Positions 1-9,623 of a stretch of DNA of 62,851 nt are shown one piece after another. Source of the stretch: Mycoplasmataceae bacterium (lineage in GTDB: Bacteria; Bacillota_I; Bacilli_A; Mycoplasmatales; Mycoplasmoidaceae); contig JAEELD010000004.1 of assembly GCA_016288695.1 (NCBI GenBank), forward strand, positions 1 through 62,851. The letters are read 5' to 3'. Positions within the stretch are counted from its first letter, which is position 1; every line of letters starts with the position of its first letter. The notes beneath the pieces are model-generated. The model was not told where the DNA came from and ran no database searches. It saw nothing but the letters and a program-made list of their open reading frames with translations. The position numbers and the translations under genes were made by a program.

Positions 1-1496
1 ATAATTCTTCTAAATCATACTTACAATTTGGAAAATCTGATAAAGCCTTCTTTGATAATTGAGATATTTATTTAAACATTTTAAATGCTTCAATTGATCA
101 ACAACAAGTAAGATATGAATTAAAACTTACCCCTAAATGTTTGAACGGGCAAATCAAGTTTAGTTCAACTGATGAACAATATAGCTCAGTTTATACAGAA
201 CAAATGCCTGTATCTAAGGCATTATATGCTAATTACATTAACCGAATATTATTGTTAAATGAAGCATCATATTTGATTAAGAATTTTGTTCTGTCAGATT
301 TTACTAATGCTTATGAAAAGGATTTTAATGAAGATCCTGCGATGTATCAGTTTTTTATTGAACAAATTGGCGAAGTTAAATTGCAACTTATAATTTTGGT
401 AGCTTTGATTGTTATTATGCAATTATTTTTTACACTATTTATGATAATATACCTTGTTAAAGCAGCGTTTGGATTTGGTGTTGTTGAATGGTGATTATTT
501 GTAGCTTTTGTGGCTTGTTGTGTAATTGCTTTGGCATTAAATGTTATCTCATTGTATTTTACATATGATTTAATAACTTCATCAATTCCAAATGATAAAC
601 GTTTAAAAGATAGTTATAAAATCTTCACTTCTTTAAAAAATATTAAAAAAACAAATGAAGTTTCTCCAAAAATAATTATTGATTTCACTAATTCAGATGA
701 ATATAAAAATCATTTAAATAATGTTACAAATTACACTTTTCCTAATGAAGTTATAATAAATGATTTCTTGAATAAGATGGGTTCACCAGATGATACTGAT
801 CCTTCTTTACCTATGTATCAATGATCAGAAATAAATAAAATTATTGCTTTGGAGAACAATTTATCTTTATTTAATCAAAATGGCAAAATTATTAACTATT
901 TTTCTCATATCACTACAGCAAATAAAGCACTTGGAGAAGAATATTTATCTCAATTAAAACTTTGTGGTTTAGGGATAGTTGGATATCTTGTGTTTTTTGC
1001 GGTTGCTATTGTTTTGTTATTACATCTAACAATGGTCGCAGGTTATAATAAGGATGAAATATGAAGAAAAAAAATGTTGCAACAAGAACTTTTTGGTGAA
1101 AATGGTGGTAATGATAGAATAGCTAGTGAGATGCAAAGTAATATTACTAGCAGACAGGAATCACTCTCAGTATCTTATGATGTTCTTTCATTGAATCTTT
1201 GTCAACAAATCAATAATAATAGTGGTCAAGCTAATAGTTATTTTTCATGGTTTAAAAGCACATTTTTTGAGATTATAATCGTAATACCTCAATTGTTTAC
1301 TCTTTATAAATTTTCAAAAATTAATTTTATAAGACCCGATAATAATGAATATGGTCCAAAATATGGTATTTTTTGTGTTCTTATATGCATTTTGTGCATC
1401 ATAGGATATTATTTTTTGATGGATTATTTGGAATTTCCAGTGTCACAATTATATATACTTGATAAGAAGGCTGCATCATTTGTTGATGCAATTTAA
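1..1496 (+). CDS. Multi-TM surface/membrane protein, paralog A (5' end outside window)
   Basis: Frame 3 is open from the window start across TGA(Trp) codons, joining ORFs 141-494, 510-824, 849-1064 and 1074-1496; ends in TAA. Hydrophobic segments (LIILVALIVIMQLFFTLFMIIYLV, LFVAFVACCVIALALNVISLYF, LGIVGYLVFFAVAIVLLLHLTMV, YGIFCVLICILCIIGYYFLM). Homologous to the C-terminal half of the next gene. Confidence 0.85.
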
Positions 1497-1592
1497 TTAG
1501 TGCTTAGCATCTGCTATTTTGTTTATAGTATAATAAATTATACAAGGCATATTTAGTCAATAAGAGTCCTATTTAAGAAGGAGTTTATATAT

Positions 1593-4184
1593 ATGACAAA
1601 GAAGATTCTTTTGGGGTTAATCCCTTTATCATTGTGCTCAATAATTGAACCTACTTGTAATGCTAGCAGTTCATTATTGAATAGTGTTAAGACTTCTAAT
1701 GAAGATGAAAAGGGAATTAGTTTTGAAAATCTTGAATACATATACCATAGTGGGGTTATTAACTATTATCGACTAGATAAAAAACAACAAATTGAAATTA
1801 ATAACCAGATTAAAGAAGAAAAATCAGAATTTTATGCCAACTTCTTAGGTAAACTTGACTATTTTTATAAAAATAATGATTTAAAGATAAGTGAAAAATA
1901 TTCAAAAATTAATGATGCTTGCTATGCTGCATCAATAAAAGTTGTTGATTTTATTTCTGTTGAAGAAGATTTGAATAAGCAAACAAAAGACATAAATGGA
2001 GTTAAATCAAATAATAGAGTAAATTCAACAGTAAATTTTTGCAAAAATAATTACTTACTTTATGATGAGTCATATGATTTAATTGATAAGGCTGCAATAG
2101 CAGAATCAATAGTTTCTACTTCAAAATCAACTGTTGTTTTGAATACAGGTATGATTTTGAAAAGATTTTTGAAATCTGTAGAAAAATCTGAAGAAAATAA
2201 AGCAAAATTAGATTCAATTTATGTTAATAAGAAAGTTTCAATTGATGAGCTTTATCAAGAAGGGAAATTAAAAGTTGGGGAAGATTTAACTGAATATGTA
2301 AGAAATAATGAATTGGATATTAATTATGAACATGAAAAATCTCAATTTTTATTACCAAATTTTCATGATTTTGAATATAAAGACAAATTTGATTTATATG
2401 TAAAAATTGATTCATTTAATTTTGATTTAAATAAAGGATATGATGTAACATTAAACTTTGGTTTAATTAATAAAGATTTCAAAAATCGCCCAGATTTTAA
2501 TGATTTTATCATTTGATCTAATGACAAAGAAAGAGTTCCTCAATTAGCAAATAGTCAAGAAAAGCAAGAGATGACATATTATATGACTCCTTCTAATGAA
2601 TATTTGCAAAAAGAAGTCAATAATGCCTTTAAACAAATTAATATGGATTTAAAACCAAAATTATTGACTAATAATGCGATTGGTGTAGAAACTTACAATG
2701 AATTAAAAAATAAAGGTCAAATTTATCAATTTGATAATTCTTCTAAATCATACTTACAATTTGGAAAATCTGATAAAGCCTTCTTTGATAATTGAGATAT
2801 TTATTTAAACATTTTAAATGCTTCAATTGATCAGCAACAAGTGAGATATGAATTGAAACTTGCCCCTAAATGTATGAATGGGCAAATCAAGTTCAGTTCA
2901 ACTGATGAACAGTTTAGTTCAGTTTATACAGAAAAAATGCCTGTATCTAAAGCATTATATGCTAATTACATTAACCGAGTATTATTGTTGCATGAAGCAT
3001 CATATTTAATTAAGGAATTTGTTCTAAAAGATCAAATCAACGCTAATGAAAAAGATTTTGAAGAAGATCCAGTAATGTATCAGTTCTTTATTGAACAGAT
3101 AGATGATGTTAAAGCGAAATTATTAGTTATGTTGGCTTCAATTTTTGTTGTACAAACAATAATGACAATAATTTTGGTTATATATGTTTTGTCTGAGTTA
3201 TGTAAGTCAGTATTAGATATAGCTGAATGACTTGAGATGGGATTACTTATTGCTTTTTTTTGTTCAGTTGGGATAGCCTTGATATTAAATGCTGTTTCTA
3301 TGTATGGTTTATATAATTTGATAGGTATATCAATTCCAAATAATAAACATTTAAAAGACAGTTACAAAATCTTTAAATCATTAAAAGGCATTAAAAAAAC
3401 TAATGAGATATCTCCAAAAATAATTATTGATTTCACTAATTTAGATGAATATAAAAAACATTTGGATAATGTTGCAAATTACACTTTTCCTAATGAAGTT
3501 AAAATAAATGATTTCTTAAGTAAGATGGGTTCACCAGAAGATACTGATCCTTCTTTACCTATGTACCAGTGATCAGAAATAAATAAAATTATTGCTTTAA
3601 AAAATAACTTATCTTTATTTAATCAAAATGGCAAAATTATTAACTATTTTTCTTACATCACTACACCAGTAAAATCATTTGGAGAAGAATATATATCTAA
3701 ATTTAGATTATGTTGTACAGGGATATTTATTGCTATTGTTCTTTTTGATGCTTCAATTGTTATATTGCTTCATTTAATAGTGTTTGCTGGAACGTCCAGA
3801 CCAGGTATAGATGCGAGAATTTCAGGATCAAGGCTTCAAGGACTTTTATATAATTCTCATAATGTTGATCAATTCAATAATGTTTTAAATAATGAACTTG
3901 GTATTATTGGAAGCGTTATTTTTAATAGTCAAAATGGTGCTTCTGATTTTTCATGATTCAAAACTATAATTTCTACTTGCTTAATTGCTGTGCCTCAAAT
4001 ACCAATTGTTTTTAAAGGCTTTAGAAAATTGTTTGATAGTAAAATGAAATATGCTTGTTTGGGTATAGCAATATGCATCTTGAACGTTTTAGGTCATGCC
4101 TTAATGTTACATAATTTATCTCTCCCTCTCTCTGAACTTTATTTATTTCAAACAAAAGTTGCATCATTCATTGATGCAATTTAA
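1593..4184 (+). CDS. Multi-TM surface/membrane protein, paralog B (full length, ~863 aa)
   Basis: ORFs 1593-2516, 2571-2795, 2841-3230, 3237-3572, 3765-3956 and 3990-4184 are all in one frame, separated only by TGA(Trp). N-terminal signal-like MTKKILLGLIPLSLCSIIEPTCNA, long hydrophilic ectodomain, C-terminal TM segments, AAGAAGGAG upstream. Confidence 0.88.
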
Positions 4185-4356
4185 TAAATAGTTATAAGAT
4201 AAAATCTATTCTTATGTGTTTTGATTAAAGGAATTTACTTATTAGGTATAAATTTTCTTTGTAAATAAATTTTTGAATTTTATTTATTATTTATTTGTTT
4301 TTTTGTAGAGATATATATATAATTACTTATGTTATTTAAGGAGAAATTAATTATTT

Positions 4357-4599
4357 ATGGCAAAAATAACTGAACAGAAATTATCACCATCTAGTGATTT
4401 GGCTGATTTGATCGGTGGAGGAAAAATAACACGCCCACAAGCAGTTAAGAAGTTCTGAGATTATGTTAAAAAACATGGTTTGCAGGATAAAAAAAATAAG
4501 AGAATGATTAATTGTGATGATAAATTAAAAGTTCTTTTTGGAAAAAAGCAAATTTCAATGTTCGAAGTTGGCGGAATGATTTCTAAAAACTTAGACTAA
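4357..4599 (+). CDS. Standalone SWIB/MDM2-domain protein (80 aa)
   Basis: Translation (code 4): MAKITEQKLSPSSDLADLIGGGKITRPQAVKKFWDYVKKHGLQDKKNKRMINCDDKLKVLFGKKQISMFEVGGMISKNLD*. Matches the SWIB pattern (L..lvG...isR..vvk.lWdYiK.n.LQd..nkr.I.cD.kLk.lFg...i.MFe). SD AAGGAG at 4338-4343. Missed by the ORF track because its Trp is TGA. Confidence 0.9.
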
Positions 4600-4636
4600 A
4601 CTTATAATTTGTTTTTTTACTTTTTTATAATTTTTT

Positions 4637-4697
4637 ATTAGTGTAAATAAATATTGTTGGATTACTAACAGTGTTTATCTTCACTAATATTTTTTTG
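4637..4697 (+). terminator. Likely intrinsic terminator downstream of the SWIB gene
   Basis: ATTAGTG(T)AAATA...GTTGG attact AAC...TTTAT..TCACTAAT long imperfect hairpin followed by a T-run. Confidence 0.55.
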
Positions 4698-4887: not shown

Positions 4888-5619
4888 ATGACTCCTCATA
4901 TTAATGCAAAATTACAAGATATAGCTGAAGTAGTCTTGATGTCTGGCGATCCTTTAAGGGCAAAATGGATTGCTAGAAAATTTTTGGAAAAGCCTCGGCT
5001 TGTCAATGATATTCGAGCAATGTATATTTATACTGGTTATTACAATAAAAAAAAGGTTACAGTGATGGGTCATGGCATGGGTATCCCTTCCATTGGTATT
5101 TATTCTTATGAATTATTTAATTTTTATGATACTAAATTCATTATTAGGCTTGGTTCTGCAGGGAGTATTAACAAAAATATAAATTTAGGTGATATTTTTA
5201 TTGCAGATGAAAGTTATAGTAATTCATCTTATGCAAGTGAAATCGGTGTTAATGCGACTAATAAAGTTCTTAAATGTGATAAAAAATTAAAAATTTTAGC
5301 TGCTAGAACTGCTAAAGAATTAAAAATTCCTTTTTTCTCTGGTAGGGTATTTTCTATGGATGCCTTTTATTCAAAATATTCTTTAAATAGTTTAAAAGCA
5401 ACAAAATCTGATATGCTTGAAATGGAAGCATTTGGATTGTATGCAAATGCAATAAAGTGTAAGAGGTCAGCATTAACTATTCTTACATGTAGTGATTCAT
5501 TAATAACAAAAAAAAGTTTATCTCCAGCTGAGCGAGAAACTTCATTTGTTAATATGGCTGAATTAGGGTTGAAATTAGCTGATAAATTATCAAAAAATAG
5601 ATGAAGCAAAAAATATTAA
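4888..5619 (+). CDS. deoD: Purine nucleoside phosphorylase
   Basis: MTPHINAKLQDIAEVVLMSGDPLRAKWIARKFLE...VTVMGHGMGIPSIGIYSYELF; the ORF-track stop is TGA(Trp), and the frame continues WSKKY* to TAA at 5617-5619. Confidence 0.93.
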
Positions 5620-5628
5620 ATTTGTAGC

Positions 5629-6267
5629 ATGAACTTAAATAAATATATAGATCACACTTTGTTGAAACAAACCGCAACCATAGATGATATAAATAAATTA
5701 TGTAAAGAGGCAATTGCACATAATTTTGCAAGTGTTTGTGTGAATCCTTGTTTTGTTAAGTATGCATCAGATTTATTAAAATCTTCAGATATTAAAGTAT
5801 GTACAGTTGTTGGTTTTCCATTAGGTGCAAATAGTACATTATCAAAGATGTATGAAGCTAATTTGGCAATCACAGATGGGGCAAGTGAAATTGACATGGT
5901 AATTAATATTTCTGATGCAAAAATGCACAATTTTAAAAATATAGAAGATGAGATAAAAAAAGTAAAGCAAGTTTGTAAAAGTATAGTTCTAAAAGTAATA
6001 ATCGAAACTTGTTTGTTATCTGATTATGAAAAAAAATTAGTTTGTCAAGCCATAATTAATGCAGGTGCAGATTTTGTAAAAACTTCAACAGGTTTTTCAT
6101 CTGGTGGTGCAACTGTTGAAGATATAAGGTTATTAAAAACTATTTGTGATGGTAAACTAAAAATAAAAGCCTCAGGTGGTATTAAAAATAAGTCAACAGC
6201 AATTGAAATGATTACTGCAGGTGCAGATAGAATTGGTACAAGTTCCGGAGTTGAAATAGTTAAATAG
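5629..6267 (+). CDS. deoC: Deoxyribose-phosphate aldolase
   Basis: MNLNKYIDHTLLKQTAT...VGFPLG...FVKTSTGFSSGGATVEDI...KASGGIKN. Confidence 0.96.
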   Translation: MNLNKYIDHTLLKQTATIDDINKLCKEAIAHNFASVCVNPCFVKYASDLLKSSDIKVCTVVGFPLGANSTLSKMYEANLAITDGASEIDMVINISDAKMHNFKNIEDEIKKVKQVCKSIVLKVIIETCLLSDYEKKLVCQAIINAGADFVKTSTGFSSGGATVEDIRLLKTICDGKLKIKASGGIKNKSTAIEMITAGADRIGTSSGVEIVK

Positions 6268-6271
6268 TTTT

Positions 6272-7573
6272 ATGAATATAATTTCCATCATTGAGAAGAA
6301 AAGATATGGTAAAGAACTTTCAAAGGAAGAAATTAAATTTTTCATAAAAAATTATGTACTAAAAAAAAATATAGCTGATTATCAAGCTTCAGCCTTTCTT
6401 ATGGCAATTGCTATAAATGGGTTGTCATATAATGAGACATTTTGGCTAACAGATGAAATGATTAAAACTAGTAAAATTTTTAAATTCAAAAATTTTATTA
6501 AAGGTCATATTATAGATAAACATTCAACAGGTGGGGTTGGTGATAAGGTTTCACTAATTTTAGCTCCAATATGTTCAGCATTAGGGATTAATGTTGCTAA
6601 GTTATCAGGCAAAGGTTTAGGTTTTACTGGTGGTACAATAGATAAATTAGCATCTATTAACATAAATACTCTATTGAACGAAAGAGATGGGGCAAGGATA
6701 TTAAAATCAACTGGTATTTTGATTATGCAACAGCAAGATAATGTTGTTCCAGCAGACAAATTATTATATAGTTTGCGAAATTCGTCTGGTTCAGTCGACT
6801 CTATACCATTAATAGCATCTAGTATTGTTTCAAAAAAAGTTGTTTTAGATTCAGAGTATATTTTTTTAGATATTAAAGTTGGTGATGGTGGTTTTTGCAC
6901 AACATTACCAAAGGCTATTAAGTTAGCAAAGCTTATGACATTTCTGTTTAAGAAATTCAAAAGAAAAGCAATCATTTTTATTACTGGAATGGATCAACCA
7001 TTAGGTAAATGTATAGGTAATGCATTAGAGATAAAAGCAGTCATAAACTTTTTACTTGGTAAACCAGAATCAAAAGAGATAGAGAATTTGATTATGATTT
7101 TCATGACTGATATTCTATTAACCTTAAAGATGGTTAAAAGTAAAATTGATGCTGAAAAATTAATAAAAAAAGTTATAAAAAATCAACTTGCTTATAAAGC
7201 TTTCTGCCACTGGGCTATTGCTCAAGGGTCAAATAAAAAATTTTTGTTAGATGGATGTTTTAAACCAAAACATAAGGCTAATATTTATTCTGATAAAAAT
7301 TGTTATATTTCATATAAGTCAACACGTGAAATAGGTAACATATCTTTTTTGCTTGGTGCTGGAAGAGTTAAGGTTGATGACCAAATTGATTATAATGCAG
7401 GTATATATCTAAATAAAATCCATAATGACTTTGTAAAAAAAGGTGATTTGATAGCATCACTTTATTCATCTAAAAATATTGAAAAAAATTTAATTGATAG
7501 ATTTAGAAAAAATATTATTTTTCAAAATAAAAAATTTAAAACAACAAAATTAATATTTAAAATTTTTAGATAG
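6272..7573 (+). CDS. deoA: Thymidine/pyrimidine-nucleoside phosphorylase
   Basis: KHSTGGVGDKVSLILAPICSALG...KLSGKGLGFTGGTIDKLASI...SVDSIPLIASSIVSKK. Confidence 0.95.
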   Translation: MNIISIIEKKRYGKELSKEEIKFFIKNYVLKKNIADYQASAFLMAIAINGLSYNETFWLTDEMIKTSKIFKFKNFIKGHIIDKHSTGGVGDKVSLILAPICSALGINVAKLSGKGLGFTGGTIDKLASININTLLNERDGARILKSTGILIMQQQDNVVPADKLLYSLRNSSGSVDSIPLIASSIVSKKVVLDSEYIFLDIKVGDGGFCTTLPKAIKLAKLMTFLFKKFKRKAIIFITGMDQPLGKCIGNALEIKAVINFLLGKPESKEIENLIMIFMTDILLTLKMVKSKIDAEKLIKKVIKNQLAYKAFCHWAIAQGSNKKFLLDGCFKPKHKANIYSDKNCYISYKSTREIGNISFLLGAGRVKVDDQIDYNAGIYLNKIHNDFVKKGDLIASLYSSKNIEKNLIDRFRKNIIFQNKKFKTTKLIFKIFR

Positions 7574-7583
7574 TTGGAATGTT

Positions 7584-7982
7584 ATGATAGTTTCGAAATT
7601 TAGTGAATTAAAAAAAATTTTAAAAAATTCCTATTCACCATATTCAAAATTTAAAACAGCAGCAATAGTTGTTACGGATAAAGGAGATTTTGTTGGTGTC
7701 AATGTTGAGAATTCATCTTACCCTGCAACAATTTGTGCAGAAAGGAATGCGATTTTCTCTGCCATTGCAAATGGAGCAAAAAAGTTTAAGTCACTTTATG
7801 TTATTAGTTCTTCAAAAAGAAAGGATATAGTTCCATGCGCCATGTGTCTCCAAGTTATGAGCGAATTTTTTACTCCTAATATAGAAATTATCTTTTTTAA
7901 TATTAATGGAGCATATGTTAAATATAAGTTTAGCCAACTATTGCCATTTTCTTTTAATAAAAAACAGTTAAAAAAAAATTAA
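7584..7982 (+). CDS. cdd: Cytidine deaminase
   Basis: YSPYSKFKTAAIV...NVENSSYPATICAERNAIFSAIANG...VPCAMCLQVMSEF. Confidence 0.95.
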   Translation: MIVSKFSELKKILKNSYSPYSKFKTAAIVVTDKGDFVGVNVENSSYPATICAERNAIFSAIANGAKKFKSLYVISSSKRKDIVPCAMCLQVMSEFFTPNIEIIFFNINGAYVKYKFSQLLPFSFNKKQLKKN

Positions 7983-7991
7983 TTTTCAATT

Positions 7992-9623
7992 ATGAATGCT
8001 CTATATAAAAAATTAATTAATTCAAAAAAAATTAATTCTAGAGAAAAAAGTAAATTAAAAAATATGTCTTTAAAAGAAATAAATAACCAGTTTATTGACA
8101 GGAAACTCCATTTTGGCACAGCTGGGATTCGTGGAATAATGGGAATTGGTCCTCAGTTTATGGATAAGGTAAATTATCAGCGTATGGCATACGGATATGG
8201 TAAATATCTGTTAAGCAAATTTAGAAATCCAATGGTTGTAATTGGTCATGATAACCGTTTTAATTCTGATAGTTTTTCTTTAGCATGTGCCGATGTTTTA
8301 ACAAGTATGGGCATTATTGTTTATTTGTTTAAAAATAATAATTTAATGCCAACCCCAATTATTTCATATTCAATAAGAAAATTGAAAGCATCAGGAGGAA
8401 TAATTGTTACTGCAAGTCATAATCCTAAAGAATATAATGGATTCAAGGCATATAATCCTGATGGTGGTCAAATTTTGCCAGATGTAGCAACTAAAATCGA
8501 AAAAAATATGCCAAGTTACTATAAGACATTAGATATGTCATTTATTAGAAATAATAGTTGCATAAAATATATTAGCGATTCAGTTATTAGCAATTATTTT
8601 TCTGATATTGAGTTGCATATTCTCGGTAAAACAAAAAATAAAAATACAAATAATTTTCCTATTGTTGTTACTACTCATCATGGAACAGCAAGCAACTATT
8701 TACCAAAGTGATTAAAATCTTTAGGTTATAAAATAAAACCTCTTTTAAGTCAATGTTATCCAAATTCTAATTTTGAGAATTCTAAATGTCTTAATCCAGA
8801 AATGTTTGAATCATTTGAACCTACCATCAAATATGCTAAAAAATGCAATGCTAAATTGATTATAGGTGTTGATCCAGATGCAGATAGAATGGCGGTTATG
8901 ATTTTGCATAAAAATAAATGAAGACTTATGACTGGTAATGAAATGGGAATAATTTATACACATTATTTGTTAAATAATGTGAAGTTTAAAAAGCAGCCAT
9001 TTATTATTAGTAGTTATGTTTCGACAAATTATATTGATGCAATTGCAAAAGAATATAATGCTAAAGTCTACCGAACTGGGACTGGTTTCAAATGAATGGG
9101 AGCAAAAGTTTCTGAATTAGATAATAAACAAAGTTTCGTAGTGGCATTTGAAGAAGCAATAGGTGGATTAAATACAAATGTAAATAGGGATAAAGATTCA
9201 TTTGCTACCTCTTTATTGGCTCTTAAAATAAATGATTTCTGCTTGAAAAAAAAGATGGATTTACTTGACTATCTGCAAGATATTGTTTTTAAAAAGTATG
9301 GTTATTGGATTGGAAAAACAAAATCATATTTAATAAAAAAAATTGATTGAAAAAAAACTGCAACAGCAAAGATGTCTTATTTTAAAAAATATTTAAAAAT
9401 TGGTAGTTCAATATGTGGATTGAAAGTTAAGAAGATTGTTTTTAATAAAATTGGTGGATGTTTAGAGTGGCATTTTGTCGGTAGAAATTGAATAAAATTT
9501 AGAATGAGTGGTACTGAGCCAAAATTTAAAGTTTACTATGAATTATATGGTAATTCATTAGACCAACTTAATGCTAAACTTAATGAACTTGATAAGTTAA
9601 TATCTTATTTGGTAATTAAATAA
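7992..9623 (+). CDS. manB: Phosphohexomutase (phosphomannomutase/phosphoglucomutase/phosphopentomutase family)
   Basis: LHFGTAGIRGIMG, TASHNPKEYNGFKAY, GVDPDADR, FRMSGTEPKFKVYYE; in-frame TGA(Trp) codons join ORFs 7992-8711 and 9096-9350; stop TAA 9621-9623. Confidence 0.9.

What the first reader, a model, noticed from the sequence alone, without database searches (positions are those of the whole stretch)
4357..4599. Tiny standalone SWIB/MDM2-domain protein in a mollicute, hidden by a UGA(Trp) codon
The 80-aa product is essentially one SWIB domain (…DLADLIGGGKITRPQAVKKFWDYVKKHGLQDKKNKRMINCDDKLKVLFGKKQISMFEVGGMISKNLD). SWIB is best known from eukaryotic SWI/SNF BAF60b and MDM2, and among bacteria from Chlamydia and some other lineages as standalone proteins or topoisomerase I fusions. 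It is not a textbook part of a minimal mollicute genome. The conserved Trp of 'WDYVKK' is encoded by TGA, so standard-code ORF calling splits the gene and the supplied track lacks it. It has its own SD and a likely terminator and sits as a monocistron between surface-protein genes and the deo cluster. It could be a nucleoid/chromatin-like or topoisomerase-associated factor; horizontal acquisition is possible. Function and origin are inference.
Basis: partly seen in the sequence, partly recalled or inferred. Interest (0 to 1): 0.8.

Follow-up and report, generated by a model that had tools for sequence, protein, structure and literature searches.

The report
SWIB nucleoid-type protein in a mollicute
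A gut-associated relative of Mycoplasma carries a tiny gene for a chromatin-type (SWIB) protein that other mycoplasmas lack, and the genomes that have it have mostly lost HU, the usual bacterial DNA-packing protein, which suggests that one has taken over from the other.

Summary
Window 4357-4599 (+) encodes, under code 4, an 80-aa protein that is one complete SWIB domain (Pfam PF02201, E 9.4e-27; AlphaFold pLDDT 90; best PDB matches are SWIB domains). Its invariant Trp34 is a TGA codon. It is a monocistron with its own TATAAT box, Shine-Dalgarno sequence and strong terminator hairpin, upstream of a confirmed deo cluster. The genome is an uncultured member of the family of Candidatus Hennigella (Mycoplasmoidaceae by NCBI). 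SWIB occurs in only 17 of 95 genomes of that family (two gut genera) and credibly in none of 225 other genomes of the order. Close homologues are standalone SWIB proteins of Elusimicrobiota, Bacteroidota and other phyla. The best explanation is an architectural nucleoid protein, by analogy with plastid SWIB-4 and Waddlia Wcw_0377. New evidence: HU is missing in 12 of 17 SWIB-bearing genomes, this one included, against 13 of 78 family members without SWIB. In this genome and one other SWIB-bearing genome HU is gone from its conserved site. Control for phylogeny leaves this suggestive (p 0.03; independent pairs not significant). In two related genomes SWIB also ends large membrane proteins. DNA binding was not tested. 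New member of a known kind.

The parts
4357..4599 (+). SWIB/MDM2-domain protein, 80 aa, code 4 (W34 = TGA at 4456-4458), pI 9.8, about +7.6 charge at pH 7
   Evidence: Pfam PF02201 E 9.4e-27; AF2/Foldseek SWIB fold; charge; purifying selection
4338..4343 (+). Shine-Dalgarno AAGGAG, 13-nt spacer to ATG
   Evidence: sequence; AGGAG/AAAGGA-type motifs precede the ATG in most relatives
4318..4323 (+). putative -10 box TATAAT, about 34 nt before the ATG; TATAAT lies within about 30 nt of the ATG in several relatives
   Evidence: sequence, read by eye; no -35 match in the pattern scan
4636..4697 (+). intrinsic terminator: long stem-loop followed by TTTTTTT
   Evidence: RNA fold -21.4 kcal/mol, z -7.4, 0 of 200 shuffles as low
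4888..9623 (+). deo cluster downstream (purine nucleoside phosphorylase, deoC, pyrimidine nucleoside phosphorylase, cdd, phosphomannomutase); not a functional partner, since SWIB is absent from this site in other genomes of the genus
   Evidence: Pfam; deo sites of 8 other genomes lack SWIB; SWIB genes of relatives lie elsewhere

Best explanation
The gene encodes a small basic standalone SWIB protein that acts as an architectural nucleoid protein in a gut-associated mollicute lineage. It binds and compacts chromosomal DNA without strong sequence specificity, directly or through partners, as reported for plastid SWIB-4 and chlamydial Wcw_0377, and it partly or wholly takes over the work of HU, which this genome has lost. 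The gene probably entered the ancestor of two genera once, from another bacterium, and was later lost in many descendants. Shown here: domain identity, fold, restricted distribution, absence of HU and its loss from its conserved site, constraint on the sequence. Inferred: DNA binding, compaction, replacement of HU, and the donor.
For: SWIB domain and fold; pI 9.8. HU is found in 287 of 320 genomes of the order but in only 5 of 17 SWIB-bearing genomes, against 65 of 78 family members without SWIB (Fisher p 2.6e-5; in the genus 4/14 against 17/22, p 0.006; in the genus at >=85% completeness 2/8 against 11/11, p 0.001). A family-specific HU profile finds nothing in this genome even at E 1. The obgE-nadE block that HU follows in the close relatives G020 and G017 is intact inside a 143-kb contig here, without HU. 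In SWIB-bearing G034, a DUF1600 ORF and others lie where HU sits between a deaminase gene and gpsA in G021 and G024. A correlated-evolution model that allows for genome incompleteness favours dependence (LRT p 0.027). Far relatives carry histone-H1-like KKAAPKKAA tails on the same domain, and NCBIfam has topoisomerase I and III proteins that end in SWIB. Literature: SWIB-4 binds DNA, compacts nucleoids and complements an E. coli hns mutant (PMC4154389); Wcw_0377 binds heparin, co-localises with DNA and gives ChIP peaks over the whole genome (PMC6426960).
Against: No binding data for this protein. The independent-pair test on the rpoB tree is not significant (2.7 pairs one way, 0.5 the other, of 7), and in the correlated-evolution fits some rates ran to extremes, one to its bound in the simpler model. 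Five genomes keep both genes (G008, G009, G010, G029, G267), and HU is also missing in some well-assembled genomes without SWIB (G276, G279, G289), so neither gene strictly requires loss of the other. This SWIB has no lysine-rich tail. The SWIB/MDM2 fold is also a protein-protein interaction module. The genomes of the genus are incomplete drafts.
Confidence: 0.6

Rival explanations
1. The protein is a protein-protein adaptor, working like MDM2 or the BAF60 SWIB domain: its groove binds a peptide of RNA polymerase, topoisomerase I, gyrase or a membrane protein, and it is not itself a DNA packer.
For: MDM2 peptide-binding domains are the next structural matches after SWIB. Topoisomerase I and III fusions place SWIB next to topoisomerases. 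In G031 and G013 SWIB sits on membrane proteins, which suits a docking module.
Against: Basic charge; genome-wide ChIP signal of a standalone relative and compaction by SWIB-4; no conserved gene neighbour that could be a partner.
Confidence: 0.25
2. The protein is an effector delivered to a eukaryotic host nucleus, as suggested for Wcw_0377.
For: Wcw_0377 was found in the host chromatin fraction; named members of the two genera come from uncultured MAGs that are probably gut-associated (L026, L042).
Against: The 80 residues are almost all SWIB domain with no signal sequence; dedicated effector export of the type III kind is not known in mollicutes (general knowledge); same-type proteins are common in free-living Bacteroidota and Acidobacteriota.
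Confidence: 0.04
3. The HU pattern is coincidence: HU has been lost several times in this fast-evolving, reduced lineage for other reasons, and SWIB does not stand in for it. This rivals only the replacement step and can hold together with a nucleoid or an adaptor role.
For: HU is missing in several genomes without SWIB; independent pairs are not significant; mycoplasma enolase can serve as a nucleoid protein (PMC8637272).
Against: Strong raw association and LRT p 0.027; all 11 SWIB-free genomes of the genus at >=85% completeness keep HU.
Confidence: 0.3

Closest known systems
Bacterial standalone SWIB/MDM2 proteins (Pfam PF02201), e.g. of Elusimicrobiota and Bacteroidota (L027, L028)
   Same: Single SWIB domain, about 45-63% identity, shared LQDKKNKRMIN core
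   Different: Many have lysine/alanine-rich N-terminal tails, absent here; standard genetic code
Chlamydial Wcw_0377 / CT460
   Same: Small protein of SWIB domain only; Wcw_0377 is DNA-associated (PMC6426960)
   Different: Different phylum; experimental data exist there, none here
Plastid SWIB-4 of land plants
   Same: Small SWIB nucleoid protein in a genome system that has lost bacterial architectural proteins (PMC4154389)
   Different: [quoted passage not shown] eukaryotic nuclear gene
Topoisomerase I/SWIB and topoisomerase III/SWIB proteins (NCBIfam NF004966, NF011313)
   Same: Same domain at the C-terminus
   Different: No topoisomerase domain here

Membership tests
SWIB/MDM2 domain family (PF02201) | Significant profile match over the whole domain | tested here: met
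   93 bits against a cut-off of 25, positions 2-73 of 74
SWIB/MDM2 domain family (PF02201) | SWIB fold | tested here: met
   AF2 pLDDT 89.9; Foldseek 1v31 TM 0.86, rmsd 1.1
Standalone bacterial SWIB protein | No other domain in the protein | tested here: met
   80 aa; SWIB the only Pfam match up to E 1
Topoisomerase-SWIB fusion | Topoisomerase domain N-terminal to SWIB | tested here: not met
   ORF is 80 aa and holds the only SWIB in the genome
Nucleoid-associated protein | Binds DNA and is nucleoid-located in vivo | not testable with these tools
   Only indirect: basic pI, published homologues
Functional HU replacement | HU absent where SWIB is present | tested here: inconclusive
   12 of 17 lack HU, LRT p 0.027, independent pairs not significant

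The most novel reading that the evidence does not exclude
A SWIB protein has replaced HU as the main architectural chromosome protein in a lineage of mollicutes, in parallel with plastids, and in one sub-lineage (G031, G013) it has been grafted onto polytopic membrane proteins that could tether the nucleoid to the cell membrane.
Probability: 0.3. Interest if true: 0.75.

Novelty: new member of a known kind. Interest (0 to 1): 0.52.

Why it matters
HU is close to universal in mollicutes, and the known structural nucleoid set of Mycoplasma gallisepticum is reduced to two HU homologues (PMC8637272). A lineage that dropped HU and carries a eukaryote-like SWIB instead would show that the main bacterial chromosome protein can be swapped out, and would make the function of bacterial SWIB proteins, found in many phyla but hardly studied, directly testable in a very small genome.

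Tried and rejected
Operon or partner by synteny: rejected, SWIB neighbourhoods are not conserved beyond close pairs, and the deo sites of eight other genomes hold no SWIB or remnant. Phage or plasmid vehicle: no phage hit, one viral contig at 42% identity, plasmid hits shown all under 50%. HU pseudogene in G034 (E 0.24, five stops): rejected, not at the syntenic HU site. A weak SWIB match outside the family (G116, 19.5 bits, stops inside) and one in the class (G477): not counted. Donor: the tree of about 80 columns cannot resolve it; mollicute SWIBs held as one clade fit better than the free quick tree (lnL +15, p-AU 0.75; one divergent membrane-protein domain left out), so a single origin is allowed but not proved.

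Full report
What is there. Window 4357-4599 on the + strand reads, under NCBI table 4, as an 80-residue protein; the one codon read otherwise than by table 11 is TGA for Trp34. The protein is a complete SWIB domain (Pfam PF02201, E 9.4e-27, positions 2-73 of 74). Sequence search of solved structures finds yeast UAF30, plant SWIB domains and BAF60. An AlphaFold model from 30 sequences has pLDDT 89.9, and Foldseek places it on SWIB domains first (1v31, TM 0.86, rmsd 1.1) and then on MDM2. Trp34 is invariant in the alignment; of 13 mollicute genes examined, this one included, 10 write it TGA and 3 write it TGG, which supports the code. Synonymous changes far exceed non-synonymous ones against relatives.

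Gene setting. AAGGAG lies 13 nt before the ATG and a TATAAT about 34 nt before it; TATAAT also lies close upstream of the SWIB gene in several relatives. These two elements were read by eye; the pattern scan, which demands a -35 box, did not list them. A long hairpin with a T tract follows at 4636-4697 (-21.4 kcal/mol, z -7.4). The gene is therefore most simply a monocistron. Upstream are two tandem paralogues without Pfam matches; the first is cut by the contig end. Downstream is a nucleoside-salvage (deo) cluster confirmed by Pfam.

Who has it. The window is contig 8 of a 607-kb, 89% complete draft. SWIB occurs in 14 of 36 genomes of the same genus and 3 of 6 of a second genus in the family; credible hits in the 225 other genomes of the order are zero, and a sample of 395 genomes of the class adds only one borderline match. 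Named records tie the two genera to a Mycoplasmataceae genome bin (L042, same contig as G002) and to Candidatus Hennigella equi (L026, same contig as G267), which NCBI places in Mycoplasmoidaceae. That these come from animal guts (termite and horse) is my inference from the isolate and species names. The closest proteins elsewhere are standalone SWIB proteins of Elusimicrobiota, Bacteroidota, Acidobacteriota, Verrucomicrobiota and others, at about 45-63% identity; several of the Bacteroidota ones carry histone-H1-like lysine/alanine tails. Holding all mollicute SWIBs but one divergent domain as one clade gives a better tree than the free quick search, so one entry into the lineage is the simplest reading, but about 80 columns cannot name the donor. 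SWIB neighbourhoods are not conserved among relatives.

The HU pattern. HU is found in 287 of 320 genomes of the order. In the family it is found in 65 of 78 genomes without SWIB but only 5 of 17 with it (Fisher p 2.6e-5). Restricted to the genus the figures are 17 of 22 and 4 of 14 (p 0.006), and to drafts of the genus at least 85% complete, 11 of 11 and 2 of 8 (p 0.001). A profile made from HU proteins of the family finds none in this genome at E 1, nor a credible one in the other SWIB-bearing genomes scored as lacking HU. In G020 and G017, close relatives without SWIB, HU follows nadE; in this genome the same obgE-nadE block is intact within a 143-kb contig and HU is not there. In G021 and G024 HU lies near a deaminase gene and next to gpsA; in G034, which has SWIB, other ORFs lie between those two genes, and in G019 the two genes are 3 bp apart. 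These are real losses from those sites, not assembly gaps, although a moved copy in the unassembled part cannot be excluded.

How firm is that. Related genomes are not independent. On an rpoB tree of 48 genomes, SWIB needs at least 8 changes and HU absence 12; seven independent pairs give 2.7 in the expected direction and 0.5 against, not significant. A correlated-evolution likelihood model with tip uncertainty set by genome completeness favours dependence at p 0.027; some of its rates are extreme, and in the simpler model one is at its bound. HU is also absent in a few good genomes without SWIB (G276, G279, G289), and five genomes have both. So the association is suggestive.

Function. Direct evidence for this protein is lacking. 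Published relatives point one way: SWIB-4 of plastids binds DNA, compacts nucleoids and complements an E. coli hns mutant (PMC4154389), and Waddlia Wcw_0377, likewise a SWIB-only protein, binds heparin, co-localises with bacterial DNA and gives ChIP peaks across the genome (PMC6426960). Chlamydia topoisomerase I ends in a SWIB domain (PMC12445093), and NCBIfam also lists a topoisomerase III that ends in one. I commit to an architectural nucleoid protein (0.6), with a peptide-binding adaptor as the main rival mechanism (0.25); chance co-occurrence with HU loss (0.3) is a rival to the replacement step only, and can hold together with either.

A wider find. In G031 and G013, a supported sister pair without detectable HU, SWIB domains also end large polytopic membrane proteins: 429-1306 aa, 4-15 predicted hydrophobic segments, one with two SWIB domains. 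Their N-terminal parts fall into more than one family. I know of no described SWIB protein with this architecture; that is from memory and was not exhaustively checked. Tethering of DNA to the membrane is a guess, though membrane association of the genome is reported for M. gallisepticum (PMC8637272). The window genome has no such protein.

Verdict. The gene is a new member of a known kind in an unexpected lineage; the possible swap with HU makes it worth an experiment. No paper found in the held library links SWIB with mollicutes in a relevant way.

Noticed in passing
L116:9561-11990, L118:8965-10254, L119:4103-8023, L121:2915-5572 (G031); L117:10086-11783 (G013): SWIB domains at the C-terminus of large polytopic membrane proteins; L116 has two. 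L119 also carries an IWARMFKKHPKPKKEEP-type repeat.
   Followed up: partly
L247:5559-5562 (G019): HU cleanly missing between two genes that flank its site in G021 and G024; no SWIB found in this 77% complete genome.
   Followed up: partly
window 3-4184: Two tandem paralogous proteins without Pfam match; the second has a signal-like N-terminus and several hydrophobic segments, the first is cut by the contig end.
   Followed up: no
G276, G279, G289 (whole genomes): Well-assembled genomes of other genera of the family with neither HU nor SWIB detected; their nucleoid protein is unknown.
   Followed up: no
L116:8913-9527 and L117:11784-12354: A homologous gene of about 200 aa lies next to the membrane SWIB gene in both G031 and G013, a possible partner.
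   Followed up: no
L254:5225-5826 (G015): The purine nucleoside phosphorylase gene of the deo cluster reads as two pieces with a stop between them in G015.
   Followed up: no
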